From contig NZ_CP010776.1 in NCBI RefSeq assembly GCF_001577755.1, positions 1,922,001 through 1,986,000 on the forward strand: DNA of 64,000 nucleotides, read 5' to 3'. The stretch is from Rufibacter sp. DG15C. Its GTDB lineage: Bacteria > Bacteroidota > Bacteroidia > Cytophagales > Hymenobacteraceae. The translations under genes were made by a program, and so were the position numbers. Below the pieces are notes generated by a model that saw only the letters and a program-made list of their open reading frames with translations, had not been told where the DNA came from and did not search any database. Positions 1,050 to 63,242 of the stretch are shown one piece after another; position 1 is the stretch's first letter; each line of letters begins with the position of its first letter.

Positions 1050-1087
1050 CCGTTTTCACCTCCTTCCCAGAAAACAGCATAAAACCG
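1050..1087. repeat. GGCC palindrome, decayed copy (P1)
   Basis: Keeps the outer CCGTTTT, the centre TTCCCAGAAAACAG and the end AAAACCG, but the GGCC cores of both arms are lost. It lies 176 nt past the nearest stop codon, the most isolated copy in the window. Confidence 0.5.
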
Positions 1088-1327
1088 TACGGTTTGGTGT
1101 TCGGTTTCATATCATGCTTGTTCATAATCGTACACTTTCACGGCGTGGTTAATTGTGTAAATAATTGATAATCAAGTGTTTTTATAAATTGGCATAGGGC
1201 TTGCCAATTGTTACTTGCCTAAAGATTAGGACAGCGTGCAACGGTGAGAGAGAAACACAGTCTTTTACTTGAACACTTGGCCGCTTAACAGGCACCTTGG
1301 TTTACACCTTAACAACAGTCTGCGCAT

Positions 1328-1588
1328 ATGCGATTCTTTTTACTCTCTTCATTAGTGGTGCTGGGATTGATCAATGTCTGTGTGCCGGTGCAGGTAGAAA
1401 TCTATGCCAGCCATTGCGCCTTAGACAGAAGTTTGTTGCAGGTGAAAGGTTTTCAGGTGAGAACCGCAGACCTGCCAGAGGCAGAGGAGCAGGAAGACCT
1501 TTCAGAAGAACAAGAGAGTTTCGCCCGGAAGGGATTAGAGGCTTTGGCCCGTCCCTGGATGCAGAAATTGAGATGGTTACAAGAATAG
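1328..1588 (+). CDS. Small exported protein, unknown
   Basis: 86 residues beginning with a signal-like stretch (MRFFLLSSLVVLGLINVCVP), then about 65 mostly polar residues with an acidic patch (EAEEQEDLSEEQE). I do not recognise the family. An overlapping frame starting at 1297 is also open but reads as an arginine/glycine-rich shadow. No ribosome-binding site is visible, which is normal in this phylum. A strong hairpin terminator 50 nt downstream supports a transcript ending here. Confidence 0.45.
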   Translation: MRFFLLSSLVVLGLINVCVPVQVEIYASHCALDRSLLQVKGFQVRTADLPEAEEQEDLSEEQESFARKGLEALARPWMQKLRWLQE

Positions 1589-1637
1589 CCCAGCCTAAGG
1601 GCGAGGTATAAAAATATTTTGGTTGTTTGTGTAGAGC

Positions 1638-1665
1638 CGGCCCCTTTGGGGCCGTTTCTTATTTT
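1638..1665 (+). terminator. Rho-independent terminator
   Basis: Stem CGGCCCC / GGGGCCG with a TTT loop, followed by TTTCTTATTTT. It ends the transcript of the small exported protein and insulates hemN. Confidence 0.8.
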
Positions 1666-1774
1666 AAGCCAGTCCAAAACTGATAAGAATCAACCTGCGC
1701 TATGACGCAAACAGGTCATGGGCGCTAGCCATACGCCAGAACTTTGTATCCACCAACAAAGAATTCCCCAGCGT

Positions 1775-3148
1775 ATGGCCTCTGCTTCTCTGCTTAAAAA
1801 ATACAACGTACCTGTACCAAGGTATACCAGCTATCCAACGGTTCCTTTCTGGGGCGACCAACTTCCAGCCACCCAAGACTGGCAAGAGGTGCTCTTGCAA
1901 ACCTTCAAGGCCACCAATCAGCAGGAAGGCATTAGTCTGTACGTGCACCTGCCTTTCTGCGAGAGCCTGTGCACCTACTGTGGCTGTAACAAGCGCATCA
2001 CCAAAAACCACGGCGTAGAGCCCATCTACCTGAAAGCCGTTTTGCAAGAGTGGGACAAGTACAAAGCACTGTTGCCAGAGAAACCGGTCATCCGGGAGAT
2101 TCATTTAGGCGGAGGCACACCCACGTTCTTTAGCCCAGAGCATTTAACCCGCTTGATTGAAGCCCTACTAGACGGCGCCGAGGTGCATCCAAACCACGAG
2201 TTCAGCTTTGAGGGGCATCCCAACAACACTACCCTTGAGCATTTGCAGGCCTTGTACAACGTGGGCTTCAGGCGGGTGAGTTACGGTGTGCAGGACCTCT
2301 CAGAGAAAGTGCAAGTGGCCATTCATAGAATTCAGCCGTTGGCGAATCTGGTGCAAGCCACCCAGCAGGCGCGGGCCATTGGCTACACGTCTATCAACTA
2401 TGACTTGATCTATGGTCTACCGTTCCAGACGCTGGAAAGCATTGCGCAGACGTTCCAGGAAGTGATTAAACTAAGACCAGACCGAATTGCCTACTATAGC
2501 TACGCCCACGTTCCCTGGAAAGAAAAGTCGCAGCGTGCTTACTCAGAAGAAGACCTGCCCAAAGACTCCGATAAACTGGCCCTCTATCAATTAGGAACTC
2601 AGCTTTTGTTAGAAGCTGGTTATGAGGATGTGGGCATGGACCATTTCGCGTTCCCACAGGAGGCCTTGTGCGTGGCTCAGAAAGAAGAGCGTCTGCATAG
2701 AAACTTCATGGGCTATACCACCAATCAGACCCAACTCATGCTAGGCTTGGGCGTGTCTTCCATCAGTGATTTGGGCATGGGCTACATGCAGAACGTGAAA
2801 ACCGTGGAGGAATATTACGCCTTGCTAGTCATGGGCGAATGGCCGCAGTTCAAAGGCTACCTGCTCACAGAATTAGACGCCCAGATGCGCCGCCATATCC
2901 TGGACATTGCCTGCCACGGCAAAACGACTTGGCTGCATACGGCTTCGCAGGAGTTTGTGAAGGAAAACATTTACCCCGCTTTGCATGTCTTGGCGCAGGA
3001 TGGACTCATAGAACTTAACCCATTTGGATTGCAGCTGACCGCCTTGGGGAAGAACTTTCTAAGGTCTGTTTGCGCTGCCTTTGACTTGTATTTGAAAGCA
3101 CCCGCGGCTGGCGCGCCACAGAAACCCATGTTCAGTCAGGCCGTCTAG
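1775..3148 (+). CDS. hemN: Oxygen-independent coproporphyrinogen III oxidase
   Basis: Radical SAM enzyme that decarboxylates coproporphyrinogen III to protoporphyrinogen IX without oxygen. The N-terminus has the HemN-type sequence VPRYTSYPTVPFW. The iron-sulphur motif is C62-x3-C66-x2-C69 with the extra C71 (CESLCTYCGC), followed by the SAM-binding GGGTPTFF. The 457-residue length and the N-terminal motif fit true HemN rather than the shorter HemW. I chose the ATG at 1775 because the 19 residues added by an upstream ATG (1718) are not family-like. It converges on hemJ, which acts on the next intermediate. Confidence 0.92.
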   Translation: MASASLLKKYNVPVPRYTSYPTVPFWGDQLPATQDWQEVLLQTFKATNQQEGISLYVHLPFCESLCTYCGCNKRITKNHGVEPIYLKAVLQEWDKYKALLPEKPVIREIHLGGGTPTFFSPEHLTRLIEALLDGAEVHPNHEFSFEGHPNNTTLEHLQALYNVGFRRVSYGVQDLSEKVQVAIHRIQPLANLVQATQQARAIGYTSINYDLIYGLPFQTLESIAQTFQEVIKLRPDRIAYYSYAHVPWKEKSQRAYSEEDLPKDSDKLALYQLGTQLLLEAGYEDVGMDHFAFPQEALCVAQKEERLHRNFMGYTTNQTQLMLGLGVSSISDLGMGYMQNVKTVEEYYALLVMGEWPQFKGYLLTELDAQMRRHILDIACHGKTTWLHTASQEFVKENIYPALHVLAQDGLIELNPFGLQLTALGKNFLRSVCAAFDLYLKAPAAGAPQKPMFSQAV

Positions 3149-3173
3149 ATTAGTTGAATGTACATTGAAAAGC

Positions 3174-3211
3174 CGTTTTTGGCTTGTTTCTCAGAAAGCA
3201 GGCCAAAAACG
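3174..3211. repeat. GGCC palindrome (P2)
   Basis: Near-consensus copy between the convergent hemN (stop 25 nt away) and hemJ (stop 30 nt away). Flanking AAAGC/GCTTT lengthens the stem to 3169-3216. No other hairpin is present, so this copy is the only candidate bidirectional terminator for both genes. Confidence 0.92.
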
Positions 3212-3241
3212 GCTTTCGCAATAATTAGTGCAGATGGAGAA

Positions 3242-3769: not shown

Positions 3770-3864
3770 AGACGCACAGCTTCAGGGAAAGATAGAAAGC
3801 CTTCGCAAAAATGGCAGATTGGCGTCAAGAAACCTATCACCTTGGTCAAATGAAAAGTGTTCTT

Positions 3865-3902
3865 CGTTTTTGGCCTCTTTCCCAGAAAACAGGCCAAAAA
3901 CG
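3865..3902. repeat. GGCC palindrome (P3)
   Basis: Ends one nucleotide before the stop codon of the minus-strand outer-membrane protein gene and is the only hairpin at that transcript end. The right arm is perfect (CAGGCCAAAAACG); the left arm has GGCCTC in place of GGCCTG. Confidence 0.92.
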
Positions 3903-3903
3903 C

Positions 3904-8972: not shown

Positions 8973-9011
8973 CGTTTTTGGCCTGTTTTGGTCAAATCAG
9001 GCCAAAAAACG
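8973..9011. repeat. GGCC palindrome (P4)
   Basis: A 39-nt version with an extra A in the right arm (GGCCAAAAAACG) and centre TTTTGGTCAAAT. It lies 8 nt after the terminator at 8929-8964 and 3 nt before the hemB stop codon. Confidence 0.9.
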
Positions 9012-10202: not shown

Positions 10203-10240
10203 CGTTTTTGGCTTATTTTCCAGAAAATAGGCTTCAAATG
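10203..10240. repeat. GGCC palindrome (P5)
   Basis: The left arm is CGTTTTTGGCTTA and the right arm has decayed to TAGGCTTCAAATG. It abuts the rocD terminator directly, on its distal side. Confidence 0.85.
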
Positions 10241-12585: not shown

Positions 12586-12623
12586 CGTTTTTGAGCTGTT
12601 TTCCAGAAAGTAGCCTGAAAACG
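12586..12623. repeat. GGCC palindrome (P6)
   Basis: 17 nt after the DUF1835 stop, with no other hairpin there. Arms are CGTTTTTGAGCTG and TAGCCTGAAAACG, so the central pairing is weaker than in the consensus. Confidence 0.88.
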
Positions 12624-13231: not shown

Positions 13232-14854
13232 ATGAAAAGCATGCGGCACTTATGGTTTTTACTGCTAGTGTCGCTTCCGCTTGGGGCGATGGGGCAGTCA
13301 ATGGCTTCCTCAGACAAGCCCACGGACTTTTTAACCAAAGAATTTCACCGGCAACGGAGAGAGCAACTGCGGCAACTGCTGCCGGCTCGCTCCGTTGCCG
13401 TTTTCTTTTCTGCCCCGGTAAGAAACCGCGCCAATGACGTGGACTTCCATTACCACCAGAACCCAGACTTCTACTACCTCACCGGGTACAAAGAGGCCAA
13501 CTCCGTTTTGCTTCTGTTTTCAGAAAACCAGACCATAAACGGACAGAGCACCAATGAAGTGGTCTTCGCGCAGCCCCGCAACCCGCAGGCAGAGTCCTGG
13601 AACGGCAAGCGCCTGGGCACCGAGGGAATGAAGCAACAACTGGGTTTTGCTGTTGCGCTTCCTAACACAGACTTCGCCGCCTTTAAGCTGGACACCACCA
13701 ACCTGCAACAGGTGCTGTTCTTTGAGCTGCCACATGATGTGCGCAATGAAGCCAGAGACCGCGGTGACCTGTATGACCTGTTGGCGCAGTTCAAGCAGAA
13801 GATAGGGTTGCGCGAAGGCAAGAGTCTGGAGCATCAGGAAATCTACAGCGCCATTAGGCAATATGACGCCCAGGCCGGTGCGCAGGTACAGCAAGAGGTG
13901 AAACGCCAGATGGAGTCCAATCCCGCGTTGGCCAACAATGCCATCCTGAAAGCCTACGTAGCCGCCAAAGACGCACCCGCCAGGGCCGCGGTAGTCGCCA
14001 GCATCCCGAGAGAAAAATTAGACACGTCTTCACTGGAAGGCATGCTCAACCAGTTGCGTGAAGAAAAGACTACGGAAGAATTGGTGCTGTTGCGCAAAGC
14101 CATCGCCATGTCGGCTATTGGGCAGGTGGAGGTAATGAAAGCCGCCAAGCCAGACATGTCCGAAACCGAGATACAGGGCATTCATGAGTACGTCTACAAG
14201 AAATACGGCGCCGAATATGAAGGCTATCCCTCTATTGTAGGGGCTGGCAACAACGGGTGCATTTTGCACTACATTGAGAATGAGAAGCCACGCATTGGCA
14301 ATGACCTGCTTTTGATGGACCTGGGCGCTGAGTACCATGGCTACACCGCCGATGTGACCCGCACTATTCCGGCCAACGGCAAATTCTCCCCTGAGCAGAA
14401 GCAGATTTATGAACTGGTGTACGCCGCGCAGGAAGCCGGTTTCCAGCAGTGCAAAGTGGGCAACTCCTTTCAGGCACCTAATGAGGCCGCTCAGAAGGTG
14501 ATGGCCGAGGGTTTGATTAAACTAGGCATCATCAAGAAACCGGAAGAGGCCCGCCGCTACACCATGCACGGTGTGTCCCATTACCTGGGGCTGGACGTGC
14601 ATGACAGAGGCTCTTACGGGCCGTTTAAACATAATACCGTCATCACGGTGGAGCCCGGCATCTATATCCCGGAGGGGAGCCCCGTGGACAAGAAATGGTG
14701 GGGTATAGGCGTGCGCATTGAAGACGATATCCTCATCACCAACACTGGCTGGGAAAACCTGTCCAAAGGCGCGCCCAGAACCGTGAAAGACATTGAAGCC
14801 ACCATGGCAAAGCCAAGTGCGCTGGATGATTTCAAACTGCCGGTGTTAAAATAG
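13232..14854 (+). CDS. pepP: Exported Xaa-Pro aminopeptidase (aminopeptidase P family)
   Basis: 540 residues, with a signal peptide (MRHLWFLLLVSLPLGAMGQ), an aminopeptidase P N-terminal domain (HYHQNPDFYYLTGYKE) and an M24 catalytic domain. The metal ligands are visible: LMDLGAEYHGYTADVTRT (two Asp), HGVSHYLGLDVHD (His), VEPGIYIPEG (Glu) and GVRIEDDILIT (Glu). It should remove N-terminal residues preceding proline, in the periplasm. Odd feature: bases 13504-13541 in the N-terminal domain are a copy of the dispersed palindrome (28 of 38 identical) encoding the loop VLLLFSENQTING. Confidence 0.9.
   Translation: MKSMRHLWFLLLVSLPLGAMGQSMASSDKPTDFLTKEFHRQRREQLRQLLPARSVAVFFSAPVRNRANDVDFHYHQNPDFYYLTGYKEANSVLLLFSENQTINGQSTNEVVFAQPRNPQAESWNGKRLGTEGMKQQLGFAVALPNTDFAAFKLDTTNLQQVLFFELPHDVRNEARDRGDLYDLLAQFKQKIGLREGKSLEHQEIYSAIRQYDAQAGAQVQQEVKRQMESNPALANNAILKAYVAAKDAPARAAVVASIPREKLDTSSLEGMLNQLREEKTTEELVLLRKAIAMSAIGQVEVMKAAKPDMSETEIQGIHEYVYKKYGAEYEGYPSIVGAGNNGCILHYIENEKPRIGNDLLLMDLGAEYHGYTADVTRTIPANGKFSPEQKQIYELVYAAQEAGFQQCKVGNSFQAPNEAAQKVMAEGLIKLGIIKKPEEARRYTMHGVSHYLGLDVHDRGSYGPFKHNTVITVEPGIYIPEGSPVDKKWWGIGVRIEDDILITNTGWENLSKGAPRTVKDIEATMAKPSALDDFKLPVLK
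13504..13541. repeat. GGCC palindrome inside pepP (P7)
   Basis: 28 of 38 bases match the consensus, including CGTTTT, CTGTTTTC, CAG.CCA and AAACG. It is read in the frame whose consensus translation is VFGLFSRKQAKN; here it gives VLLLFSENQTIN. It lies between a conserved strand and the conserved FAQPRNPQAESWNGKRLG segment. Confidence 0.75.
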
Positions 14855-14869: not shown

Positions 14870-14907
14870 CGTTTTTGGCCTGTTTTAGCAGAAATAGCGC
14901 AAAAATG
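14870..14907. repeat. GGCC palindrome (P8)
   Basis: 15 nt after the pepP stop. The left arm is perfect; the right arm is TAGCGCAAAAATG. No other terminator follows, and the rpmG promoter begins 73 nt downstream. Confidence 0.88.
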
Positions 14908-16461: not shown

Positions 16462-16499
16462 CGTTTTTAGGCTGTTTTCCAGAAAAGAGGCCGAAAAGG
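16462..16499. repeat. GGCC palindrome (P9)
   Basis: Begins 2 nt after the ftsY stop codon. The left arm has GTTTTTAGGCTG; the right arm is GAGGCCGAAAAGG. It is the only hairpin candidate ending ftsY. Confidence 0.88.
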
Positions 16500-18046: not shown

Positions 18047-18084
18047 CGTTTTTGGCTTAGTTTCCAGAAATCAGGCCGAAAACG
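18047..18084. repeat. GGCC palindrome (P10)
   Basis: Begins 2 nt after the rimO stop. The right arm reads CAGGCCGAAAACG, leaving a T-G wobble in the stem. A conventional terminator follows 9 nt later, so here the order is stop, palindrome, terminator. Confidence 0.92.
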
Positions 18085-19810: not shown

Positions 19811-20386
19811 ATGCGCAAGTCTGACCTCAGGAAAGCCTACCTCGCCAAGCGCCGCAGCCTCTCTGAGGCCGAAGTGGAGGAGCTCAGTCAGCAACTGTCC
19901 GACCGGTTTTTCGAGGCCTTTGCCCCACGCGCCGGGCAGACGGTGCACGTGTTTCTGCCTATCCAACAGCATCGCGAAATCAATACCTGGCACATCATTC
20001 ATAGGCTGTGGACTGAGTTTCCGGAGGTTCGGGTGGCCACGTCTGTCTCGCATCTGGAGGACTGCAGCATGACGCACTACCTGCTTACGCCCACCACCCA
20101 GCTGCTTGTCAATAAATGGGGAATCCCCGAGCCCGTGCAGGCGCAACAGATTTCAGAAGAGGAGATTGACTTGGTGCTGGTGCCGCTGTTGGCCTTTGAC
20201 TTGCAGGGTCATCGCGTGGGATACGGCAAAGGCTTCTATGACCGTTTTCTGGCTCTTTTACCCAAATCAAGCCAAAAACAAGGTTTGTCTCTAGAGCCAC
20301 CCATCCCCCAGATTGAAGACGTCCATCCCTTGGACTTGACTTTGGATGCGGTGATTACTCCGACTCAGATATACCGTTTTTCCTGA
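19811..20386 (+). CDS. 5-formyltetrahydrofolate cyclo-ligase
   Basis: Converts 5-formyl-THF to 5,10-methenyl-THF using ATP. 191 residues with the N-terminal basic segment (KSDLRKAYLAKRRSLS), VHVFLPIQQHREINTW, and the C-terminal nucleotide-binding block DLVLVPLLAFDLQGHRVGYGKGFYDR, then DAVITPTQIY. Directly after the conserved FYDR Arg, bases 20243-20280 look like the dispersed palindrome and encode FLALLPKSSQKQ; the segment has roughly the normal family length, so it replaces rather than lengthens that loop. Confidence 0.92.
   Translation: MRKSDLRKAYLAKRRSLSEAEVEELSQQLSDRFFEAFAPRAGQTVHVFLPIQQHREINTWHIIHRLWTEFPEVRVATSVSHLEDCSMTHYLLTPTTQLLVNKWGIPEPVQAQQISEEEIDLVLVPLLAFDLQGHRVGYGKGFYDRFLALLPKSSQKQGLSLEPPIPQIEDVHPLDLTLDAVITPTQIYRFS
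20243..20280. repeat. GGCC palindrome-like copy inside the cyclo-ligase gene (P11)
   Basis: 28 of 38 bases match the consensus; the right side AAGCCAAAAAC is nearly intact, while GGCC of the left arm has become TGGC. The frame used is the one whose consensus reads RFWPVFQKTGQK; here RFLALLPKSSQK. Confidence 0.6.
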
Positions 20387-20802
20387 AAGTAGACACTAGA
20401 AAAATCATCTACATCGCAATATTGCCACCAACACCAATTCTCCCCTTGAGGATTGCCCAAACGAGAGTTTGAGGTAGCGAGCGGAGCTTAGCAGAGGGGT
20501 GTTTACATCACCTGATTAAACTAGCAGAAGAAAGAGATGCGTGAGAGACAAGGCAGTGCCGTTGTCTCTACAAAGAAAATCAGTGTTTAGGCAGTATTAG
20601 CGTTAAATGACACGCATGTCTAGTTCGCCCACAAGGTCCTTTCAGGATGACAAAGAGGAGAAGGAAAAATGGGAAGTGGAATGGGCGGGTAAGCATTTAA
20701 CCAGCAAACCCCGTTTTTGACCTGTTTTCTGGGAAAAAGGTCAAAAATGGGGTTACTAAGATTGACTCGTGACTCAGAACTCGCGACTCGGGACTAAAGA
20801 AA
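20387..20802. other. Intergenic region rich in small repeats
   Basis: 416 bases with no supported gene. It contains CAAAC-gaga-GTTTG (about 20459-20473), a stem AGAGACAA / TTGTCTCT (20544-20569), palindrome P12, and a run of imperfect GACTCG-type direct repeats (20764-20795) before the next minus-strand gene. Confidence 0.6.
20712..20749. repeat. GGCC palindrome with compensated arms (P12)
   Basis: The left arm TTTTTGACCTG pairs with the right arm AGGTCAAAAA: both halves changed together from the GGCC consensus. 53 nt beyond the stop of the minus-strand START-like gene. Confidence 0.92.
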
Positions 20803-25339: not shown

Positions 25340-25377
25340 CGTTTTTGGCCTGTTTCCCTGAAAATAGGTCAAAAATG
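25340..25377. repeat. GGCC palindrome sharing an arm with a terminator (P13)
   Basis: The left arm is perfect except for the centre; the right arm is TAGGTCAAAAATG. Its last bases (AAAATGG) are also the foot of the 19-bp terminator stem at 25372-25414, so the two hairpins cannot both form fully. Confidence 0.9.
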
Positions 25378-26827: not shown

Positions 26828-26874
26828 AAACGGCCCAGAAACCACGGAGGTTTATTTCCGTTTCTGGGCCGTTT
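26828..26874 (-). terminator. Hairpin between the VOC and BrkB genes
   Basis: Stem AAACGGCCCAGAAA / TTTCTGGGCCGTTT (14 bp) with a 19-nt loop. It is in the 3' flank of neither plus-strand gene; it lies 24 nt past the BrkB-type stop on the minus strand and would end that transcript. Its GGCC and AAACG resemble the dispersed palindrome but the arms differ. Confidence 0.75.
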
Positions 26875-26898
26875 TATGGAAATTAAAGCAAAAACGAG

Positions 26899-28035: not shown

Positions 28036-28073
28036 CGTTTTTGGCCTGTTTTCCAAGAAATAGCCCGAAAACG
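28036..28073. repeat. GGCC palindrome (P14)
   Basis: Perfect left arm; right arm TAGCCCGAAAACG. It directly abuts the terminator of the DUF4403 gene (28074-28111) with no base between. Confidence 0.9.
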
Positions 28074-29571: not shown

Positions 29572-29640
29572 GCCCAAAGATACGGCTAAACCCCAAGAGG
29601 TGAAGCTTCTAGGCGCGGTTAAATGAAAAGCCAAACTGCA

Positions 29641-30933: not shown

Positions 30934-30971
30934 TGTTTTTGAGCCGTTTTCTGGAAAACAGGGCAAAAACA
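30934..30971. repeat. GGCC palindrome (P15)
   Basis: The arms are TGTTTTTGAGCCG and CAGGGCAAAAACA: the outermost pair changed from C-G to T-A on both sides. It directly abuts the threonine dehydrogenase terminator. Confidence 0.88.
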
Positions 30972-32013: not shown

Positions 32014-32092
32014 GCGGGGTTGAAATTATAGCAAACAAATGTACGTTATATCTGGGGCATCAAAAAATATGGGCGTGGCTCTTAGCCTTTTG

Positions 32093-32100
32093 TATCTTTG
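32093..32100 (+). promoter_or_regulatory. -7 box TATCTTTG
   Basis: Exact TAnnTTTG 26 nt before the ATG at 32127, in the divergent region with threonine dehydrogenase. It favours 32127 over upstream start codons. Confidence 0.5.
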
Positions 32101-32126
32101 AACATAGAACCACGCGTACTCTCTCT

Positions 32127-33260
32127 ATGACCTTCTCAGAGTTTCTGGTTAAGCGGCGCATTGAAGAGTCGGCCTTCGCGGCCGAGGATGCCCCCCGGTA
32201 CGCGCAGTGGCAGACGCTATACGCCCAAATGCACCCCAATAGTTTTTACAACTCGGTGAAGATGGTGCTCAACGACGTTCGCCGAAGGTTCCATCTGGCC
32301 CAGGTATCCGCCGCAGAAGCTGTTGCTGCTCCCGCCAAGCCGAAGCCGGTCATCCGCCGCGCGCCTTCTGCTGTACCCGCTGAGCCTACTTCAGAACAAG
32401 CCCCCGTTTCCAGACAGCCTGCCGAGATAGTTGCGCAACAGTCTGCGTCAGTGCTAGAGGAGAAGAAAACGGAAGAAGCTGTTTCGCAAGAAATCCCTAA
32501 ACCAGCCAAGCCCAGACCGGTCTTTAAGCGGCCAGCCCAAGCGGCAGAGGAAATTGCTGCTTCTGAGGAAAAATCTGAGTCTGCACCGGAAACGCCTGTC
32601 ACAGCGCCTAGACCACGCCCTGTTTTCAAACGGCCATCTGCCGCCGCACCTGACCAACCAACAAAAGAGAAGGCACCCGAACCAAAAGCAGAAAGCCCGG
32701 CGGGTGATTCGCCTAAACCGCCCAAACCTAGACCCGTGTTCAAGCGTCCTGCGGCTACCCCTGAAACCAAGGCTGATGAGGTAGATGGCCAGGAACCGTT
32801 TTTGGCCTCAAATCCAGAAAACAGCCCAAAAACGGAACTTGAGTCAGGAGCTGTGTCTACTTCTACCGCAGACGCAAAACCTGCCACGCCCAGACCTAGG
32901 CCGGTGTTTAAAAGGCCATCGGCGGAAGTGAAAGGGGAGGGAAGCACTGAAGAGCTATCTTCTTCAAAGCAACCCTTGCCTGAGCAACCGGAGGCACCAA
33001 CTATTGAAGTAATTCCTTCGGCCAAACCGCCAAGGCCGCGCCCAGTCTTCAAACGACCAGCCTTAAGCACAGAGTCTGTACAGGATAAGCCAAAGGACGT
33101 ATCATTTTCGGCTCAGAATCCAGAAAATAGGCCAAAAACGGAAGATATGCCAAGTGCAGAAGGTGCACCTGAAGAAACTCCTTCGCCCAAAACGCCCCGG
33201 CCGAGGCCTATTTTCAAAAGACCCAGCCCCTCAGCAGAAGGCGATGGAAACCCCAAATGA
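32127..33260 (+). CDS. PRPVFKRP-repeat protein, unknown
   Basis: 377 residues. The first 60 form a compact helical head (FLVKRRIEESAF, YAQWQTLYAQMHPNSFYNSVK). The rest is low-complexity, rich in Pro, Lys, Glu and Ala, carrying six PRPVFKRP-type motifs (the last reads PRPIFKRP) and one earlier KPKPVIRRAP, spaced 33-56 residues apart. Two linkers contain the dispersed palindrome, read in the same frame as LASNPENSPKTE and SAQNPENRPKTE. The basic motifs alternate with acidic linkers, suggesting a flexible binding tail for nucleic acid or protein; this is inference. No family recognised. Lies between the divergent threonine dehydrogenase and kbl. Confidence 0.75.
   Translation: MTFSEFLVKRRIEESAFAAEDAPRYAQWQTLYAQMHPNSFYNSVKMVLNDVRRRFHLAQVSAAEAVAAPAKPKPVIRRAPSAVPAEPTSEQAPVSRQPAEIVAQQSASVLEEKKTEEAVSQEIPKPAKPRPVFKRPAQAAEEIAASEEKSESAPETPVTAPRPRPVFKRPSAAAPDQPTKEKAPEPKAESPAGDSPKPPKPRPVFKRPAATPETKADEVDGQEPFLASNPENSPKTELESGAVSTSTADAKPATPRPRPVFKRPSAEVKGEGSTEELSSSKQPLPEQPEAPTIEVIPSAKPPRPRPVFKRPALSTESVQDKPKDVSFSAQNPENRPKTEDMPSAEGAPEETPSPKTPRPRPIFKRPSPSAEGDGNPK
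32797..32834. repeat. GGCC palindrome inside the PRPVFKRP gene (P16)
   Basis: Left arm CGTTTTTGGCCTC, right arm CAGCCCAAAAACG; the centre is AAATCCAGAAAA rather than TTTTCCAGAAAA. Read as PFLASNPENSPKT. Confidence 0.88.
33103..33140. repeat. GGCC palindrome inside the PRPVFKRP gene (P17)
   Basis: Left arm decayed (CATTTTCGGCTCA), right arm TAGGCCAAAAACG, same AATCCAGAAAA centre and same frame as P16 (SFSAQNPENRPKT). Confidence 0.85.
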
Positions 33261-34525: not shown

Positions 34526-34563
34526 CGTTTCTAGCCTGTTTTACAGGGAATAGCTCAAAAACG
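34526..34563. repeat. GGCC palindrome sharing an arm with a terminator (P18)
   Basis: Begins one base after the kbl stop. Arms are CGTTTCTAGCCTG and TAGCTCAAAAACG. Its CAAAAACG end also forms the foot of the terminator stem at 34557-34597. Confidence 0.88.
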
Positions 34564-36090: not shown

Positions 36091-36130
36091 CTGTTTTTGG
36101 CCTGTTTTGCAGGAAATAGGCCAAAAACAG
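36091..36130. repeat. GGCC palindrome (P19)
   Basis: 40 bases with arms CTGTTTTTGGCCTG and AGGCCAAAAACAG; the consensus CG end is replaced symmetrically by CTG / CAG. Lies in a convergent gap, next to the NYN terminator. Confidence 0.92.
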
Positions 36131-36954: not shown

Positions 36955-36992
36955 CGTTTTTAGCCTCTTTTCTAGAAATCAGGCCAAAAACG
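36955..36992. repeat. GGCC palindrome (P20)
   Basis: 19 nt past the serine hydrolase stop (minus strand), the only hairpin there. Left arm CGTTTTTAGCCTC, right arm a perfect CAGGCCAAAAACG. Confidence 0.9.
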
Positions 36993-37926: not shown

Positions 37927-37978
37927 AGCGTTCGGTTTTATCTGCAAAAGATAGAGAATCTATACGAAAGGAGGGAAG

Positions 37979-38016
37979 CGTTTTTGGCTTGTTTTCTGGG
38001 AAATAGGGCAAAAATG
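37979..38016. repeat. GGCC palindrome (P21)
   Basis: Lies 52 nt upstream of the serine hydrolase start and 133 nt past the cdaA stop. Arms are CGTTTTTGGCTTG and TAGGGCAAAAATG, with the centre in the opposite orientation (TTTTCTGGGAAA). Confidence 0.85.
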
Positions 38017-40444: not shown

Positions 40445-41534
40445 GTTTGCCTGGCTGGTAGTTGGGGCGCTCTTCATCTTCTCGGGCCTCATCAAGCTCA
40501 ATGATCCCGTAGGCACGGCCATCAAGTTGGAGGAATACTTTGAGGTTTTCTCTAAGGATTTCTCCAGCGTCTTTCTGGTGTTTGTGCCCTACGCACTCTA
40601 CTTCTCTATTTTCCTGAGCTCATTGGAAGTAATACTAGGCGTGGCGCTGTTAGTGCGCTGGCGCGAAAGGCTGGTGCTCTGGGTTTTGCTGGCCTTGACC
40701 GTCTTCTTTACGTTCCTGACCTTTTACTCGGCGTACTTTAATAAGGTAACCGACTGCGGCTGCTTTGGGGATGCCATCAAACTCACGCCCTGGGAGTCGT
40801 TTAGCAAAGATGTCATTCTCTTAGTGTTGCTGTTGATTCTGTTGGCTACCCAGCGTTTTTTGCCTGTTTCCACCAAAAGAGGGCAAAAATCGGCAGGCTT
40901 TGTAGTGCTAATTGTCACCCTGCTATCGGTGGGCATGGGCGTGTATGCATTTCAGCATGAGCCATACCTGGACTTCAGGGCGTATAAAGTAGGCGCGAAC
41001 ATTCCGGCCTTGATGAAACCATCTGCTCCTTTGCGCTATGAGTACATCATGGAGAAGGGCGGAAAGGAGGAGCGCTTTACGGAGTACCCAACAGACCCTA
41101 GCTACAAATTCAAGAAGATGGTGCCGCTTAACCCACAGGACGGTCCCAAAATCACCGACTTCAACGTCTGGAACGACCAGGGCGACTTCACCAAGGAGTT
41201 GTTCATAGGCAACCGCTTGTTGCTGGTGGTGCATGACATCCCGAAGACAAACGCAGAGAGCTTTAAAGAAATCAATGGGTTGTTGACTAGCCTAGAGAAG
41301 GACTCGTCTAAAAAGGTGTCGCCGGTGGTATTGACCTCTAGCAGCGGCCAGGAGTTTGACGTTTTTAGGCATGAGGTGAACCTGTCTGCGCCTTACTATT
41401 TTGCAGATGCCACAGTTCTTAAAACCATTATCAGGTCCAACCCGGGTCTGTTGCTTCTTAAAAACGGCGTGGTGGTAGGCAAATGGCATCACAATGACGT
41501 GCCCACGCAAGAGCAAGTGCAGTCACTCTTATAA
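40422..41534 (+). CDS. DoxX-like membrane protein with thioredoxin-like domain (BT_3928 type)
   Basis: 370 residues: four N-terminal membrane helices with the DoxX/MauE-type LVVGALFIFSGLIKLNDPVG and the Cys pair KVTDCGCFGD, a fifth helix at about residue 160, then a soluble domain ending in a thioredoxin-like fold (LLVVHDIP, LLLLKNGVVVGKW) without CxxC. A role in membrane redox chemistry is likely but unproven. Bases 40854-40892, in the cytoplasmic loop before the last helix, are a palindrome copy encoding RFLPVSTKRGQKS. Confidence 0.85.
   Translation: MVLRLLNRFAWLVVGALFIFSGLIKLNDPVGTAIKLEEYFEVFSKDFSSVFLVFVPYALYFSIFLSSLEVILGVALLVRWRERLVLWVLLALTVFFTFLTFYSAYFNKVTDCGCFGDAIKLTPWESFSKDVILLVLLLILLATQRFLPVSTKRGQKSAGFVVLIVTLLSVGMGVYAFQHEPYLDFRAYKVGANIPALMKPSAPLRYEYIMEKGGKEERFTEYPTDPSYKFKKMVPLNPQDGPKITDFNVWNDQGDFTKELFIGNRLLLVVHDIPKTNAESFKEINGLLTSLEKDSSKKVSPVVLTSSSGQEFDVFRHEVNLSAPYYFADATVLKTIIRSNPGLLLLKNGVVVGKWHHNDVPTQEQVQSLL
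40854..40892. repeat. GGCC palindrome inside the DoxX-type gene (P22)
   Basis: 39 bases: left CGTTTTTTGCCTGTTT, right GAGGGCAAAAATCG. Read in the frame whose consensus is RFWPVFQKTGQK; here RFLPVSTKRGQK. Located in a loop between helices, where insertion would be tolerated. Confidence 0.75.
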
Positions 41535-41542: not shown

Positions 41543-41580
41543 CGTTTTTGGCCTTATTTCTAGGAATCAGGCCAAAAACG
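41543..41580. repeat. GGCC palindrome (P23)
   Basis: 8 nt after the DoxX-type stop and 30 nt before aroK. Both arms are near consensus; centre TTATTTCTAGGAAT. Confidence 0.92.
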
Positions 41581-47176: not shown

Positions 47177-47218
47177 AAACAGAAGAAGGCCACCTGCAAA
47201 GGTGGCCTTCTTCTGTTT
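47177..47218. terminator. Bidirectional terminator
   Basis: Perfect 18-bp stem (core AGAAGAAGGCCACC / GGTGGCCTTCTTCT) with loop TGCAAA, 17 nt past the YDG-protein stop and between convergent genes. Confidence 0.93.
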
Positions 47219-47251
47219 TAGGGCTACTTCCAGAAAAGCAGCCTGTAAATG
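47214..47251. repeat. GGCC palindrome, decayed copy (P24)
   Basis: TGTTTTAGGGCTACTTCC then AGAAAAGCAGCCTGTAAATG; recognisable by centre and spacing but with broken arms. It overlaps the foot of the terminator at 47177-47218. Confidence 0.55.
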
Positions 47252-47595: not shown

Positions 47596-47633
47596 CGTTT
47601 TTAGCCTGATTTCTAGAAAGTAGCCTGAAAACG
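47596..47633. repeat. GGCC palindrome in a divergent region (P25)
   Basis: Upstream of both flanking genes (97 nt before the plus-strand membrane protein), so not a 3' end. Arms CGTTTTTAGCCTG and TAGCCTGAAAACG; flanking TG/CA lengthens the stem. Confidence 0.88.
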
Positions 47634-50169: not shown

Positions 50170-50222
50170 AAAAGAGTCGTTTTCGGCCTGGTTTCCAGAA
50201 ATCAGGCCGAAAACGACTCTTT
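50170..50222. terminator. Extended palindrome acting as terminator
   Basis: AAAGAGTCG / CGACTCTTT outside palindrome P26 extends the stem to 20 perfect base pairs, followed by CTTTTTT. It is the only terminator candidate between the convergent lipoprotein and RNase genes. Confidence 0.85.
50178..50215. repeat. GGCC palindrome with compensated arms (P26)
   Basis: The left arm CGTTTTCGGCCTG pairs perfectly with CAGGCCGAAAACG: the T-A pair at arm position 7 became C-G on both sides. Confidence 0.95.
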
Positions 50223-51608: not shown

Positions 51609-52009
51609 AGAAGGAGATTCTAAAGGCTAGGCAATCGTGTACGCGCAGGCATTTGGGTTGTTGTGGATTATGGCAGCAGGCGGCCTCGTTTTTTGCTTCT
51701 TTTCTAGAAAATAGCCCGAAAGTGATGTCATTTGCTTGACAACCAGTCTGATATAATTTATGGCTGCCGAGTGAGTTTGAAAGGGCGTGAGAAAAGCGGT
51801 ATTTTTGAGCCCTTCAGGGCAAATCTTTCTGCTTTGTTTCTTGCGCTTACGCCGCCGTGAGTGCTTTGACTGTAAAACACTTTGACTTAAAACCAGGTGT
51901 CTTTTACCACTGTACAATAGCCCGCTAACGGTTTACGCCTTAAAAAGTAATTTAAGTTTGTAGCGTAGCGTCAGATTTGAACATTCTAGTACCTTCTTGA
52001 ATCTTAAGA
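51609..52009. other. Divergent region between RNase and SulP genes
   Basis: 401 bases with a decayed palindrome (51687-51724) and a small stem GCCCTTCAGGGC (51809-51820). A minus-strand open frame here has no signal, motif or codon bias I can support. I see no clear promoter match for either gene. Confidence 0.55.
51687..51724. repeat. GGCC palindrome, partly decayed (P27)
   Basis: Left CGTTTTTTGCTTC, right TAGCCCGAAAGTG. It lies upstream of both flanking genes, 78 nt from the RNase start. Confidence 0.7.
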
Positions 52010-53549: not shown

Positions 53550-53587
53550 CGTTTTTGGCTTGTTTTAGTGAAAAGAGGCTGAAAACG
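53550..53587. repeat. GGCC palindrome (P28)
   Basis: 10 nt after the SulP stop. Arms CGTTTTTGGCTTG and GAGGCTGAAAACG. First of two copies in the 200-nt convergent gap with galT. Confidence 0.9.
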
Positions 53588-53703: not shown

Positions 53704-53741
53704 CGTTTTTGACCTGATTTCCAGAAAACAAGCCAAAAACG
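53704..53741. repeat. GGCC palindrome abutting galT (P29)
   Basis: The last base is directly before the galT stop codon (53742). Arms CGTTTTTGACCTG and CAAGCCAAAAACG; the left-arm change is not compensated. Confidence 0.92.
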
Positions 53742-54815: not shown

Positions 54816-54853
54816 CGTTTTTGGCCTGTTTTCAGGAAACTGGGCTAGAAACG
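54816..54853. repeat. GGCC palindrome containing the galK stop codon (P30)
   Basis: Left arm perfect (CGTTTTTGGCCTG), right arm TGGGCTAGAAACG. The galK reading frame ends at 54832, inside this copy, so its last seven residues come from the repeat. Confidence 0.9.
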
Positions 54854-59180: not shown

Positions 59181-59218
59181 CGTTTTTGGCCTGATTTTCA
59201 GAAACTAGGCTAAAAACG
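59181..59218. repeat. GGCC palindrome in a 5' region (P31)
   Basis: Lies 50 nt upstream of the GH53 start, not at any gene end, so it would be in the GH53 leader if transcription begins near operator O2. Arms CGTTTTTGGCCTG and TAGGCTAAAAACG. Confidence 0.9.
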
Positions 59219-59268
59219 GAACCACCCGCTGACACTACGCATGGTCCCAAATGCCCAGCATAAAGACA

Positions 59269-60462: not shown

Positions 60463-60469
60463 TCACCGT

Positions 60470-60507
60470 CGTTTTTGGCTTGTTTTTCAGAAATCAGGCT
60501 AAAAACG
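60470..60507. repeat. GGCC palindrome (P32)
   Basis: 7 nt after the GH53 stop. Arms CGTTTTTGGCTTG and CAGGCTAAAAACG. An open frame of the next gene runs back into this copy but its true start lies 120 nt further on. Confidence 0.92.
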
Positions 60508-60602
60508 AAGCATTTTACATACTCGTTTTACAAGGCTGGATTCCAGTGTTTCGGCCTGCCACCCATAAATTAGTGAACATGTCTTTTCCCTCTTTACACG
60601 CC

Positions 60603-63182
60603 ATGAATCCTATAAGGACGCTTTTCTGCTTGATGGCCTTCTGCCTGTTAAGCCAAGCCCCCGTGTGGGCGCAGTCCCAAAAAGGCAAAGAGCCAGAGTT
60701 GGTGTATGTAGACCAGCAGGGCATTCTACGCTGGACCAAGACCAAGCAAGAGGCGGCGTTTTTTGGGGTGAATTACACGGTGCCCTTCGCGTATGGCTAC
60801 CGGTCTGTGAAGGCCCGCGGCGTCAACCCAGAGAAAGCCATTGACGAGGATGTCTACCACTTGGCGCGCCTGGGGTTTGACGCGTTTAGGGTGCACGTCT
60901 GGGACACTGAGATTTCAGACTCCTTGGGCAACCTGCTGGAGAATGAGCACCTGCGCCTGTTTGACTACCTGGTGTATAAGCTGAAGGAACGCAACATCCG
61001 GGTGTTGATCACGCCCATTGCGTTCTGGGGAAACGGCTGGCCCGAAAAAGACGAGAAAACCCCCGGTTTCTCTTATAAGTATGGCAAGCAAAAAGGATTG
61101 GTAGAGGAGACGGCGTTTCTGGCGCAGGAGAATTACCTGAAGCAGTTCCTGAACCACGTCAATCCCTATACCCAACAGACCTATGAGCAGGACGGCAACG
61201 TGATTGCCACCGAAATCAACAACGAGCCCCAGCACTCGGGGCCCAAGGCGCGCACTACCGAATACGTGACCCGTATGGTGGCCGCCGTGCGCGGCACCGG
61301 CTGGAAAAAGCCCGTCTTCTACAACATCAGCGAGTCGCCTAAGTACGCTGACGCCATCGTGCAGGGAGTAGGGGTGGACGGCTACAGTTTTCAGTGGTAC
61401 CCTACCAATTTGATGGCCAACCATTCCTTGCAGGGCAATTACCTGTCACATGTAGACCGCTACCATATCCCATTTGACACCCTGGCCGCCTTCAAGAACA
61501 AAGCCCTGATGGTATATGAGTTTGACGCCGCTGATATTCTGGGTTCTTACATGTACCCAGCCATGGCCAAGAGCTTCAGGACCGCCGGTTTCCAGTGGGC
61601 CACGCAGTTCGCGTATGACCCCATGGCCACCGCCTACGGCAACACCGAGTACCAGACGCATTATTTGAACCTGGCCTTTACGCCAGCCAAGGCCATCAGT
61701 TTGATGATTGCGGGCAAAGCCTTTCATCGGTTGCCCTTGCGCAAGAACTTTGGCGTGTACCCGGCAGACAGCGTGTTTGGGGAGTTCAGGGTGAGCTACA
61801 AGCAGTCTATGAGTGAGATGAACACCGCCCAGGAGTTCTATTACTCGGGTTCCACCCAGACCCAGCCGCTCCTCAAGAGCAAGCTGGAGCATGTGGCAGG
61901 CGTGGGCAGTTCGCCCGTAGTCAAGTACTCTGGCACTGGGGTGTATTTCCTGGACAAGCTAGAGAAGGGCGTCTGGCGCTTAGAGGTGATGCCGGATGCG
62001 TATTTCATCCGAGACCCGCTGGGCAAGGCATCGCCTAACAGAGAAGTGAGTCGCATACAATGGCAGGCCCAAAACATGAAGATTCTCTTAGCCGAGCTAG
62101 GGGAGAGCTTTGAGGTGAGAGCCGTGAACGAGGGCAACACCTACGCCGGCAAAGCCAAGGACGGAAGTTTTCAGGTGAGCCCCGGCGCGTATATTTTGAG
62201 CAAGAAGCAGAAAACCAGTTGGGCTGGGAACAAGAAGTACGGCAACCTACGCGTGAACGAGTTTGTGGCCCCGCAACCGTATGCTTCGGGCATCTACGTG
62301 ACCCATGAGCCCCTGAAAGAAGTAAGCAGCGGACAGCCGTTTACCATTACAGCGCAGGTGGTGGGTATTTCTTCAGAAGCCAAGGTGACTCTGCAATTGA
62401 ACAACCAGGCGGCCGCCTACAAGACCATTCCCATGCAAGCGGTGGGTGACGGTCAGTTCTCGGCTCAGGTTCCGGCAGATGTTTTAACTCCCGGCCAAAT
62501 CTCTTACAGAATCTTGGCGCAGGACGGGGAAAAGCAAGTGACGTTCCCGGGAGACCATGCGGGCAATCCCTGGGCTTGGGACGCGACCATGGCCGAGACC
62601 TACCAAACCTTCGTGGCCGCGCCTAACGGGCAATTGGAACTGTTCAACGCCACCAATGACCGGAGTCTGTTTGTGTTCCCCAACCTCTGGAAAAGCGAGG
62701 AACGCCAATTGATAGCCTCTGAAAAACCAGGTCAGCTTATCTTGAAACTTACCGCCCAGCAACTCCCCGAAGAACAGACCATGGGCCTGCAGCACTACAT
62801 TGGTGATAAACTGAAGGGCAGACAGGCGGAGTTGGGTAGCTTTGGGAAACTGGTGATACGGGTAAGGTCCACCACTGGCGCGGCTCTGCCCTTGAAAGTG
62901 AACCTGGTCACCCATCAGGCCACTGGCTTTGTGGCGCAAGTATCTGCCGGCACTACGTTCCAGAACATAGAAATCCCATTGAGTACGTTGCAGCCCGATG
63001 CGTTCATGCTGTTACCGAGGCCGTATCCGGGCTTCCATCCATTCTGGTTCACAGGCAAAGGCGCCCTGGGCTTTCAGTTGAAAGACGTGGAGAAGTTGCA
63101 AATCTACCTGGGGCAAATGGACAAGGCTACCACCGGTCCTAAGGGCTTTGAGATTGAGTCTGTCTGGCTAGAGAAGAAGTAA
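60603..63182 (+). CDS. Exported clan GH-A glycoside hydrolase, family unassigned
   Basis: 859 residues with signal peptide (LFCLMAFCLLSQAPVWAQ). Residues about 20-420 form a cellulase-like barrel: FFGVNYTVPFAYGYRS, GFDAFRVHVWDTEI, the acid/base E208 in TEINNEPQHSG and the nucleophile E306 in MVYEFDAADI. The C-terminal half is beta-rich (about residues 430-620 and 620-859), likely accessory or carbohydrate-binding domains. The ATG at 60579 is an alternative start. Its place between endo-galactanase and galM suggests a galactosidase or galactanase role; I cannot assign the GH family. Confidence 0.82.
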   Translation: MNPIRTLFCLMAFCLLSQAPVWAQSQKGKEPELVYVDQQGILRWTKTKQEAAFFGVNYTVPFAYGYRSVKARGVNPEKAIDEDVYHLARLGFDAFRVHVWDTEISDSLGNLLENEHLRLFDYLVYKLKERNIRVLITPIAFWGNGWPEKDEKTPGFSYKYGKQKGLVEETAFLAQENYLKQFLNHVNPYTQQTYEQDGNVIATEINNEPQHSGPKARTTEYVTRMVAAVRGTGWKKPVFYNISESPKYADAIVQGVGVDGYSFQWYPTNLMANHSLQGNYLSHVDRYHIPFDTLAAFKNKALMVYEFDAADILGSYMYPAMAKSFRTAGFQWATQFAYDPMATAYGNTEYQTHYLNLAFTPAKAISLMIAGKAFHRLPLRKNFGVYPADSVFGEFRVSYKQSMSEMNTAQEFYYSGSTQTQPLLKSKLEHVAGVGSSPVVKYSGTGVYFLDKLEKGVWRLEVMPDAYFIRDPLGKASPNREVSRIQWQAQNMKILLAELGESFEVRAVNEGNTYAGKAKDGSFQVSPGAYILSKKQKTSWAGNKKYGNLRVNEFVAPQPYASGIYVTHEPLKEVSSGQPFTITAQVVGISSEAKVTLQLNNQAAAYKTIPMQAVGDGQFSAQVPADVLTPGQISYRILAQDGEKQVTFPGDHAGNPWAWDATMAETYQTFVAAPNGQLELFNATNDRSLFVFPNLWKSEERQLIASEKPGQLILKLTAQQLPEEQTMGLQHYIGDKLKGRQAELGSFGKLVIRVRSTTGAALPLKVNLVTHQATGFVAQVSAGTTFQNIEIPLSTLQPDAFMLLPRPYPGFHPFWFTGKGALGFQLKDVEKLQIYLGQMDKATTGPKGFEIESVWLEKK

Positions 63183-63204
63183 GCTGGAACCTTAAGCGGC
63201 TCCC

Positions 63205-63242
63205 GTTTTTGGCCTGTTTTCCAGAAAGCAGACCAAAAACGG
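63205..63242. repeat. GGCC palindrome (P33)
   Basis: 22 nt after the GH-A gene stop, 34 nt before galM. Almost perfect arms, extended by GCTCC / GGAGC. Best match to the consensus in the window. Confidence 0.95.

What the first reader, a model, noticed from the sequence alone, without database searches (positions are those of the whole stretch)
1050..63242. A dispersed 38-bp GGCC palindrome, about 33 copies in 64 kb
Seen directly: the unit is CGTTTTTGGCCTG, a 12-nt centre TTTTCCAGAAAA, and CAGGCCAAAAACG, an almost complete inverted repeat. Copies occur about once per 2 kb. About 25 of 28 non-coding copies are in 3' flanks or convergent gaps, many within 20 nt of a stop codon; only P25, P27 and P31 are purely upstream. 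No RAYT transposase or IS is nearby. I know of no named family with this sequence. Candidates are a REP/BIME-like element, a non-autonomous mobile palindrome, or a paired DNA-uptake sequence that doubles as terminator.
Basis: partly seen in the sequence, partly recalled or inferred. Interest (0 to 1): 0.88.

Follow-up and report, generated by a model that had tools for sequence, protein, structure and literature searches.

The report
Position-locked palindromes at gene ends
A genus of bacteria carries a 38-letter mirror-image DNA sign beside many of its gene ends; the signs stay at matching places in different species while their spelling differs, as if read by a DNA-binding protein that is still unknown.

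Summary
The window holds 34 copies of a 38-bp dyad (PWM >=12 bits); 32 lie within 10 mismatches of the consensus, against 0 in ten Markov-1 controls. Density in 400 kb extrapolates to about 1,700 copies per genome. It occurs in 16 of 16 genomes of the genus (Rufibacter and kin) and in 1 of 115 sampled genera of the order.

It does not look actively mobile: 126 of 127 anchored copies sit at the orthologous place in the nearest relative, more conserved than non-coding flanks (85% vs 68%, gapped). It is not a T-tailed terminator; within genomes the arms vary independently. Half-sites rarely occur alone, against uptake sequences and IS ends. RAYTs exist in relatives but are not clearly linked to it. 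Species use different spellings at matching gene ends.

Best reading: a duplex-DNA site for an unidentified host factor, roughly one per transcription-unit end, perhaps descended from a REP-like burst. Factor and function are unproven; hairpin-like features of about 10% of copies and hints of copying in one relative stand against it.

The parts
1050..1087 (.). weak copy (26.7 bits), unclassified context at window edge
3174..3211 (.). copy, convergent gap, 25 nt after the stop of 1718-3148
   Evidence: G013 ortholog
3865..3902 (.). copy, 1 nt after the stop of 3904-4515(-)
   Evidence: G013 ortholog
8973..9010 (.). copy, convergent gap, 4 nt after the stop of 9015-9995(-)
   Evidence: G013 ortholog
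10203..10240 (.). copy, 56 nt after the stop of 10297-11538(-)
   Evidence: no one-to-one G013 ortholog found
12586..12623 (.). copy, 17 nt after the stop of 11798-12568
   Evidence: no one-to-one G013 ortholog found
13504..13541 (.). weak match (25.0 bits) inside the M24 peptidase gene; may be chance
14870..14907 (.). copy, 15 nt after the stop of the M24 peptidase gene; 6 of 8 other genus loci have a palindrome there (<=12 mismatches)
   Evidence: G013 ortholog
16462..16499 (.). copy, 2 nt after the stop of the SRP54-type GTPase (ftsY-like) gene; 5 of 8 other genus loci have a palindrome there, with other spellings
   Evidence: G013 ortholog
18047..18084 (.). copy, 2 nt after the stop of the radical-SAM/TRAM (rimO-like) gene
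   Evidence: G013 ortholog
20243..20280 (.). match inside ORF 19811-20386, recurring as coding sequence in relatives; probably not an element
20712..20749 (.). copy, convergent gap
   Evidence: G013 ortholog
25340..25377 (.). copy, same-strand gap
   Evidence: G013 ortholog
26859..26896 (.). copy, 2 nt after the stop of 26899-27861(-)
   Evidence: G013 ortholog
28036..28073 (.). copy, 61 nt after the stop of 28135-29634(-)
   Evidence: G013 ortholog
30934..30971 (.). copy, same-strand gap
   Evidence: no one-to-one G013 ortholog found
32797..32834 (.). copy inside the 417-aa ORF 32007-33260
   Evidence: G013 ortholog
33103..33140 (.). copy inside the 417-aa ORF 32007-33260
   Evidence: G013 ortholog
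34526..34563 (.). copy, 1 nt after the stop of 33331-34524
   Evidence: G013 ortholog
36092..36129 (.). copy, convergent gap
   Evidence: G013 ortholog
36955..36992 (.). copy, 19 nt after the stop of 37012-37947(-)
   Evidence: G013 ortholog
37979..38016 (.). copy, same-strand gap
   Evidence: no one-to-one G013 ortholog found
40854..40891 (.). copy inside ORF 40422-41534; its core is inverted relative to G013
41543..41580 (.). copy, 8 nt after the stop of 40422-41534
   Evidence: G013 ortholog
47214..47251 (.). weak copy (23.6 bits) after 43824-47159
   Evidence: G013 ortholog
47596..47633 (.). copy, same-strand gap
   Evidence: G013 ortholog
50178..50215 (.). copy, convergent gap, inside a 7-bp locus-specific outer stem followed by a T-run
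   Evidence: G013 ortholog
51687..51724 (.). copy, divergent gap
   Evidence: no one-to-one G013 ortholog found
53550..53587 (.). copy, 10 nt after the stop of 52010-53539 (convergent gap with two copies)
   Evidence: G013 ortholog
53704..53741 (.). copy, directly after the stop of 53742-54767(-)
   Evidence: G013 ortholog
54816..54853 (.). copy overlapping the 3' end of ORF 54832-55992(-)
   Evidence: G013 ortholog
59181..59218 (.). copy, divergent gap
   Evidence: no one-to-one G013 ortholog found
60470..60507 (.). copy, 7 nt after the stop of 59251-60462
   Evidence: G013 ortholog
63204..63241 (.). copy, 21 nt after the stop of 60480-63182
   Evidence: G013 ortholog

Best explanation
The 38-bp palindrome is a double-stranded DNA recognition site for an as yet unidentified host factor, most simply a dimer whose subunits each read a 19-bp half-site. 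About 1,700 such sites mark the ends of transcription units, rarely more than one or two per intergenic gap. Shown: a dyad of fixed spacing; few solo half-sites; arms that vary independently within genomes; positional conservation and sequence constraint between sister species; species-specific spellings at matching gene ends. Inferred: the factor itself; that spellings change because sites and factor coevolve; and that the bound site acts as a two-way boundary at gene ends (blocking read-through of RNA polymerase or fixing topology). The array was probably seeded by a REP-like amplification in the ancestor of the genus and then fixed in place.
For: Anchored copies shared with the nearest relative: 126 of 127; the one missing is lost by substitutions without an indel. 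Gapped identity over length: palindromes 85%, fully non-coding 40-nt flanks 68%, unrelated flanks 49%. Within-genome Watson-Crick pairing of arms equals the shuffled expectation: 2272 observed, 2272.6 expected, 165 copies, 19 pairs; pooled over the six genomes with the sharper consensus 7211 vs 7273.9. Of 292 one-sided changes in 81 ortholog pairs, 261 make or break a pair, while 17 double changes keep pairing (10.5 expected). Transcript-sense G-U 318 vs A-C 308 summed over five genomes. T/A tracts about one helical turn apart within each half (consensus; inference). Solo half-sites: 2 in 400 kb of G000, control 1. A de novo search lists the dyad among its three best motifs in 12 of 12 genus genomes (25.7-54.1 bits); in 4 of 4 genomes of other genera the three listed motifs reach at most 23.0 bits. 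Gene ends marked in G000 are marked in the ortholog in 62-93% of cases in 11 genomes; unmarked gaps 8 of 75 in G013 and 12 of 53 in the other ten together. In deep splits the distance to the stop agrees within 10 nt in 45% of 319 against 22% permuted. Copies per gap 0/1/2 = 95/116/13 against 157/40/12 expected by length.
Against: No protein was identified and no function tested. About 10% of copies carry locus-specific outer inverted repeats (run >=4: 17 of 165 against about 1.7 expected), and pairing-preserving double changes exceed chance (39 vs 22.8 +/- 4.3 over all 126 ortholog pairs; 11 vs 2.7 in the 16 with outer stems; 17 vs 10.5 +/- 2.9 in the 81 cleanest pairs). In three smaller sets (G012, G006, G003) transcript-sense G-U exceeds A-C, 151 to 106, P = 0.006; G013 leans the other way, 84 to 113, P = 0.046. 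Locus-specific sequence memory is lost in the deepest splits (G000 or G013 vs G012, z 1.1 and 0.2), so independent re-insertion at preferred places is not excluded there. G012 holds identical off-consensus copies at unrelated loci. Five genomes of 60-80 kb (G003, G004, G008, G011, G014) and G002 (40 kb) have a blurred consensus of 26-31 bits. G009 has 5 solo half-sites in 60 kb (control 0), and 13 of 165 copies in G000 have one weak arm.
Confidence: 0.46

Rival explanations
1. An untagged REP-like repeat spread and turned over by a TnpA_REP/RAYT-type or other transposase; new spellings invade by copying into old sites, which keeps positions fixed. It has no host function, or a secondary one.
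For: RAYT proteins over the NCBIfam cut-off exist in the 15 other genus genomes. REPs also sit mainly downstream of coding regions (PMC3733652 abstract). Identical off-consensus copies at unrelated loci in G012; 9 of 11 such copies map to places with a palindrome in G000, as do 35 of all 51 G012 copies, so this is not special to them. One clear inversion of a core between G000 and G013 (18 direct vs 5 reverse differences). In G013 the best RAYT locus has a palindrome 77 nt before the start and 121 nt after the stop. Near-identical pairs exceed a simple null slightly in G000 and G013 (4 vs 0.5; 5 vs 0.6) and strongly in G012.
Against: The own genome has no RAYT over the cut-off, only a 203-aa weak match (37.2 bits, cut-off 80) whose nearest detected palindrome is about 1.3 kb away. 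RAYTs also occur in 8 of 9 genomes of other genera of the family at E<=1e-5 (7 of 9 over the cut-off), which lack the palindrome apart from one weak match in G022. Of 15 RAYT loci with 1.5-kb flanks two show no copy at all (four were scanned with a PWM borrowed from another genome, and the ORF bounds are wrong in several). No GTAG/CGTC tag. Stem pairing is not conserved within genomes. 126 of 127 anchored copies shared.
Confidence: 0.27
2. An RNA element: the transcribed palindrome folds after the stop codon and protects or terminates the mRNA.
For: Position just after stop codons (0-9 nt in 24 of 76 same-strand copies). 54 of 71 marked same-strand gaps have no separate terminator by a simple finder. 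Some copies are the tip of longer stems with A- and T-runs, whose outer stem differs between G000 and G013 yet stays paired. G-U exceeds A-C in the transcript sense in G012, G006 and G003 together (151 to 106, P = 0.006). Excess of pairing-preserving double changes.
Against: No covariation within genomes and no G-U excess in the two largest sets (83/89, 84/113). No T-run enrichment beside copies (10 of 165; background 0.07) and 4 of 165 overlap a terminator call. RNAalifold predicts no consensus structure. No Rfam match over gathering score.
Confidence: 0.17
3. A DNA-uptake or self-recognition signal like the DUS of Neisseriaceae.
For: High copy number and species dialects, as for DUS (PMC3630211 passages). 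Non-syntenic blocks of G000 hold 5 copies against 19.3 expected.
Against: Half-sites rarely occur singly. The motif carries 44-51 bits in five genomes, far more than a 12-mer. Mostly one per gap and rarely in genes. The depletion of non-syntenic blocks was not seen in G013 (12 vs 13.1). No uptake receptor was looked for.
Confidence: 0.05

Closest known systems
REP/BIME/REPIN repeats with TnpA_REP (RAYT)
   Same: 20-50 nt palindromes, extragenic, hundreds to thousands of copies, mostly 3' of genes (PMC8266576 passages, PMC3733652 abstract)
   Different: no GTAG/CGTC tag, no clearly linked RAYT, stem pairing not conserved within genomes, copies locked in place between sister species, spelling shifts at matching gene ends
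Untagged REP-like palindromes (named as an open class in PMC3733652, passages)
   Same: high-copy palindromes without terminal motif or known transposase; [quoted passage not shown]
   Different: genus-wide distribution, orthologous positions, dialects and independently varying half-sites are measured here
DNA uptake sequences (DUS) of Neisseriaceae
   Same: species dialects of a high-copy motif
   Different: a 38-bp dyad at gene ends instead of a 10-12-mer that also occurs singly (the latter recalled)
HIP1 of cyanobacteria
   Same: highly iterated palindrome across a clade
   Different: HIP1 is the octamer GCGATCGC linked to methyltransferases (start of the PMC4390886 abstract in the listing)
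Intrinsic terminators
   Same: inverted repeat in 3' flanks
   Different: no U-tract as a rule; ordinary terminators lie separately, some abutting the palindrome

Membership tests
REP (RAYT-associated) | short extragenic palindrome in high copy, mainly 3' of genes | tested here: met
REP (RAYT-associated) | unpaired GTAG or CGTC tag at one end | tested here: not met
   the terminal CG is paired; in G000 and G013 the flanks show only a pyrimidine/purine preference; in G012 the dyad itself runs a few bases further
REP (RAYT-associated) | RAYT gene in the genome, flanked by copies | tested here: not met
   own genome: one weak match without palindrome within about 1.3 kb; 15 relatives have RAYTs over the cut-off, some with copies near and some without
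REP (RAYT-associated) | hairpin stem preserved | tested here: not met
   no within-genome covariation; a modest excess of pairing-preserving double changes between G000 and G013, strongest in the 16 copies with outer stems
REP (RAYT-associated) | mobility or copy turnover | tested here: inconclusive
   126 of 127 shared in G000/G013; hints of copying in G012
DNA uptake sequence | motif occurs as single copies besides inverted pairs (recalled) | tested here: not met
   2 solo half-sites in 400 kb of G000, control 1; 1 in G013; 0 in G012; 5 in 60 kb of G009
DNA uptake sequence | species dialects | tested here: met
DNA uptake sequence | dedicated uptake receptor and biased transformation | not tested
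   receptor genes not searched; transformation needs the bench
Intrinsic terminator | GC-rich hairpin followed by a T-run | tested here: not met
   10 of 165 have TTTT within 10 nt on the 3' side, background 0.07; 4 of 165 overlap a call; a minority with outer stems and T-runs exists
IS end or MITE | half-site occurs as a terminal repeat of a longer element | tested here: not met
   few solo half-sites in the stretches searched; target-site duplications not examined
Protein-binding dyad site | fixed spacing and independently varying half-sites | tested here: met
Protein-binding dyad site | cognate binding protein | not tested
   none identified

The most novel reading that the evidence does not exclude
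A bacterial genus uses a genome-wide punctuation system: one long palindromic protein-binding site per transcription-unit end, installed in the genus ancestor, held in place ever since and respelled genome-wide in each lineage as its reader protein evolves; the bound protein would be a general two-way boundary between transcription units, for which I know no bacterial precedent.
Probability: 0.3. Interest if true: 0.9.

Novelty: new variant of a known kind. Interest (0 to 1): 0.72.

Why it matters
[quoted passage not shown] Here is a case in which position, sequence constraint, arm independence and dialect can be measured across many genomes of one genus, so that the question becomes testable by a pull-down and by 3'-end mapping. 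If the boundary reading holds, it would be a new layer of bacterial chromosome organisation; if the conversion reading holds, it would be concerted evolution of about 1,700 short sites.

Tried and rejected
RNA hairpin: fold_alignment gave no structure, the pair count equals shuffles, Rfam gave nothing over gathering score. Y1 transposase: none in the own genome, but wider searches showed RAYTs in relatives, so the 'no RAYT' argument had to be narrowed. The exact consensus was not found in viral contigs; blastn at E<=1, with its low-complexity filter on, found nothing in phages or plasmids. Orientation: an asymmetric model fits better than the null in both genomes (gain 62.5 vs 39.4 +/- 4.3; 82.0 vs 37.3 +/- 4.7), but orientation shows no clear tie to transcription (34 opposite and 23 same in G000; 42 same and 30 opposite in G013, sign convention not comparable). 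The orientation-by-centre G-U/A-C counts were discarded, because the symmetric PWM makes orientation arbitrary; one search replaced them. Flank identity was first measured without gaps (37-53%), which understates it; the gapped figure of 68% is the one to use. Phylogenetic profiling for the reader protein was not attempted, for want of whole proteomes. Papers: searches with Rufibacter plus palindrom and Rufibacter plus repeat plus intergenic, list no title about such a repeat; those papers were not opened. The library lacks most subscription papers, so a printed description may exist.

The home-made gene caller marks 76-81% of bases as coding and missed clear ORFs in the window, so gap-class numbers are approximate. 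R1 was built with a palindromic structure and at most 150 matches per genome are scored.

Full report
What is there. A symmetric PWM refined on 400 kb of the same chromosome (G000, 4,143,738 bases in one contig; window = 1,922,001-1,986,000) gives 165 copies (4.1 per 10 kb, 0 in one Markov-3 control), which extrapolates to about 1,700 per genome, and 34 in the window. The unit is a dyad of two 19-bp half-sites, 5'-CGTTTTTGGCCTGTTTTCC, with T/A tracts (positions 3-7 and 14-17 and their mirrors) about one helical turn apart within each half. In G000 only a pyrimidine at -1 and a purine at +39 extend it; in G012 the dyad runs some four bases further on each side.

Where it occurs. rimO-based loci place the window among Rufibacter and close kin (Sabulibacter), in a family with Pontibacter, Adhaeribacter and Hymenobacter. 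A covariance model of 31 window copies matches 16 of 16 genus genomes with 93-150 hits each (150 is the cap); of 23 other genomes one, G022, has a single weak match. In a sample of 291 genomes of the order 4 match, all of this genus, 1 of 115 genera (stricter filters). No blastn match in phages or plasmids and no exact match in viral contigs. A de novo dyad search lists the palindrome among its three best motifs in 12 of 12 genus genomes (25.7-54.1 bits); in 4 of 4 genomes of other genera the three listed motifs reach at most 23.0 bits, so the separation is narrow for the most blurred genus member, G008.

Location. With an approximate gene caller, 36 of 46 convergent gaps of >=38 bp, 73 of 133 same-strand gaps and 20 of 45 divergent gaps of G000 hold a copy; in G013, G012, G006 and G003 the convergent fraction is 0.77-1.00. 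Distances after the upstream stop cluster at 0-9 nt (24 of 76 same-strand copies) with a second rise at 40-69 nt (21 of 76). Copies per gap are under-dispersed: 95 gaps with none, 116 with one, 13 with two, against 157, 40 and 12 expected by length. Twenty-three of 165 hits lie in called genes or at edges. Ordinary terminators are separate, some abutting.

Not mobile on the time scale seen. Between G000 and its nearest relative G013 (median protein identity 90%), 127 of 165 copies could be anchored by flanking alignment (26 had no anchor, 12 fell in rearranged places); 126 are shared and 1 is lost without an indel. Identity over length with gaps allowed is 85% for the palindromes, 68% for 142 fully non-coding 40-nt flanks and 49% for unrelated flanks; without gaps the figures are 83% and 37-53%. 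Ortholog copies differ by 6.3 letters, random pairs by 8.5. Mean mismatches to consensus are 5.29 in G000 and 4.79 in G013 (P = 0.025). Non-syntenic blocks >=3 kb in G000 hold 5 copies against 19.3 expected; in G013 12 against 13.1, all 12 in two blocks at the end of the compared segment.

Dialects at matching places. The half-site consensus differs between genomes: TTTTTGGCCTG in G000, G013 and G009; TTTTAGGCCTG in G006; TTTTCGGGCTCA in G012 (position 13 is C in 96%); TTTAGGGGCTG in R. immobilis; TTTTAGGGCTG and similar, blurred to 26-31 bits, in G002, G003, G004, G008, G011 and G014. Of gene ends marked in G000, 119 of 128 are marked in G013, and in ten further genomes between 13 of 21 and 24 of 26; of unmarked gaps 8 of 75 in G013 and 12 of 53 in the other ten together. 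In deep splits the distance to the stop agrees within 10 nt in 45% of 319 pairs against 22% permuted. Ortholog copies share locus-specific letters in close and some intermediate comparisons (G000/G013 z = -14.7, G003/G004 -7.8, G006/G011 -3.7), but not in the deepest ones (G000/G012 z = 1.1). There, descent in place and independent re-insertion at preferred places cannot be told apart by sequence. An 11-gene tree puts G000+G013 as first branch, then G012, then G006 (one inner node has support 0.48).

Duplex rather than hairpin. If a folded strand were recognised, arm changes should be compensated. Within genomes Watson-Crick pairs equal the expectation for independent arms (2272 vs 2272.6; several genomes fall below it, which fits a mild polarity; G009 lies above it, z 2.2). 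In the transcript sense G-U against A-C is 83/89 in G000, 84/113 in G013, 42/30 in G012, 65/44 in G006 and 44/32 in G003: 318/308 in all, but 151/106 (P = 0.006) in the last three. In 81 ortholog pairs without outer stem, 261 of 292 one-sided changes make or break a pair, while 17 double changes keep pairing (10.5 expected); over all 126 pairs 39 do (22.8 expected). Further against: 17 of 165 copies have outer inverted repeats of >=4 bp (about 1.7 expected), up to 15 bp in G013, some with A/T-runs and with outer stems that differ between species yet stay paired, and in 16 such ortholog pairs double changes exceed chance (11 vs 2.7). I read these as templated copying between arms of a long palindrome or as terminators built around it; both are inferences. 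One core is clearly inverted (18 direct vs 5 reverse differences, window copy 40854, which lies inside an ORF).

Pairing of half-sites. Half-sites of >=15 bits outside dyads: 2 in 400 kb of G000 (control 1), 1 in G013 (0), 3 in G006 (1), 0 in G012 (0), 1 in G005 (1), 5 in 60 kb of G009 (0). In 13 of 165 G000 copies one arm is weak. This gives no sign of IS ends with the same repeat in the stretches searched, and argues against an uptake signal that works singly.

Transposase question. PF01797 gave no match in the own genome but matched the 15 other genus genomes. One of these proteins, 182 aa, was scanned and passes the NCBIfam REP_Tyr_transpos cut-off (92.8 vs 80 bits). With that model 33 of 39 genomes match at E<=1e-5 and 25 pass the cut-off, including all 15 genus relatives and 7 of 9 genomes of other genera in the family; the own genome has one weak match (37.2 bits) in a 203-aa frame at 1,757,184. 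Copies near RAYT genes are irregular: none within 1.5 kb in two of 15 loci, on both sides in G013 (with the limits named in the rival). So RAYTs are neither specific to palindrome-bearing genomes nor strong in this one. In vitro work describes hairpins preceded by GTAG as their substrate (PMC8266576 passages), which these are not. Copying is nevertheless suggested in G012: five pairs of copies with <=1 difference by best orientation, the first of each pair at least 4 letters off consensus, at unrelated loci; one asymmetric pair is identical over 38 bp and 5 off consensus. Of 11 such copies 9 map to places with a palindrome in G000, as do 35 of all 51. The null used ignores linkage within half-sites, so its excess in G012 (30.9 vs 11.2 +/- 1.7) and G005 (25.6 vs 10.3 +/- 2.1) is only indicative.

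Judgement. The facts fit a set of protein-binding dyads at transcription-unit ends better than an active repeat, an RNA element or an uptake signal; the reader protein and the function are not identified. It works like a punctuation or boundary mark (inferred); by family it is an untagged REP-like repeat, not a member of the RAYT-associated REPs.

Noticed in passing
window 32007-33260: 417-aa ORF rich in PRPVFKRP-like repeats, no Pfam match, carries two palindromes (32797, 33103), both with a G013 ortholog.
   Followed up: partly
window 43824-47159: 1111-aa protein with six YDG-domain stretches and a Por secretion tail; explains the 264/267-bp direct repeats.
   Followed up: yes
G000 about 2,002,544-2,027,844 (outside the window): 25-kb block without synteny to G013 and with one palindrome; possibly acquired DNA.
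   Followed up: no
L001-L005, L007, L008 downstream of rimO: Strong terminator-like hairpin with CCTCACAGG...CCTGTGAGG after rimO in 7 of 8 genus loci, and at two other places in G012; may be a second small repeat family.
   Followed up: no
L106 17151-17762 (-): 203-aa RAYT-like protein with an HVH motif, the only such match in the own genome.
   Followed up: partly
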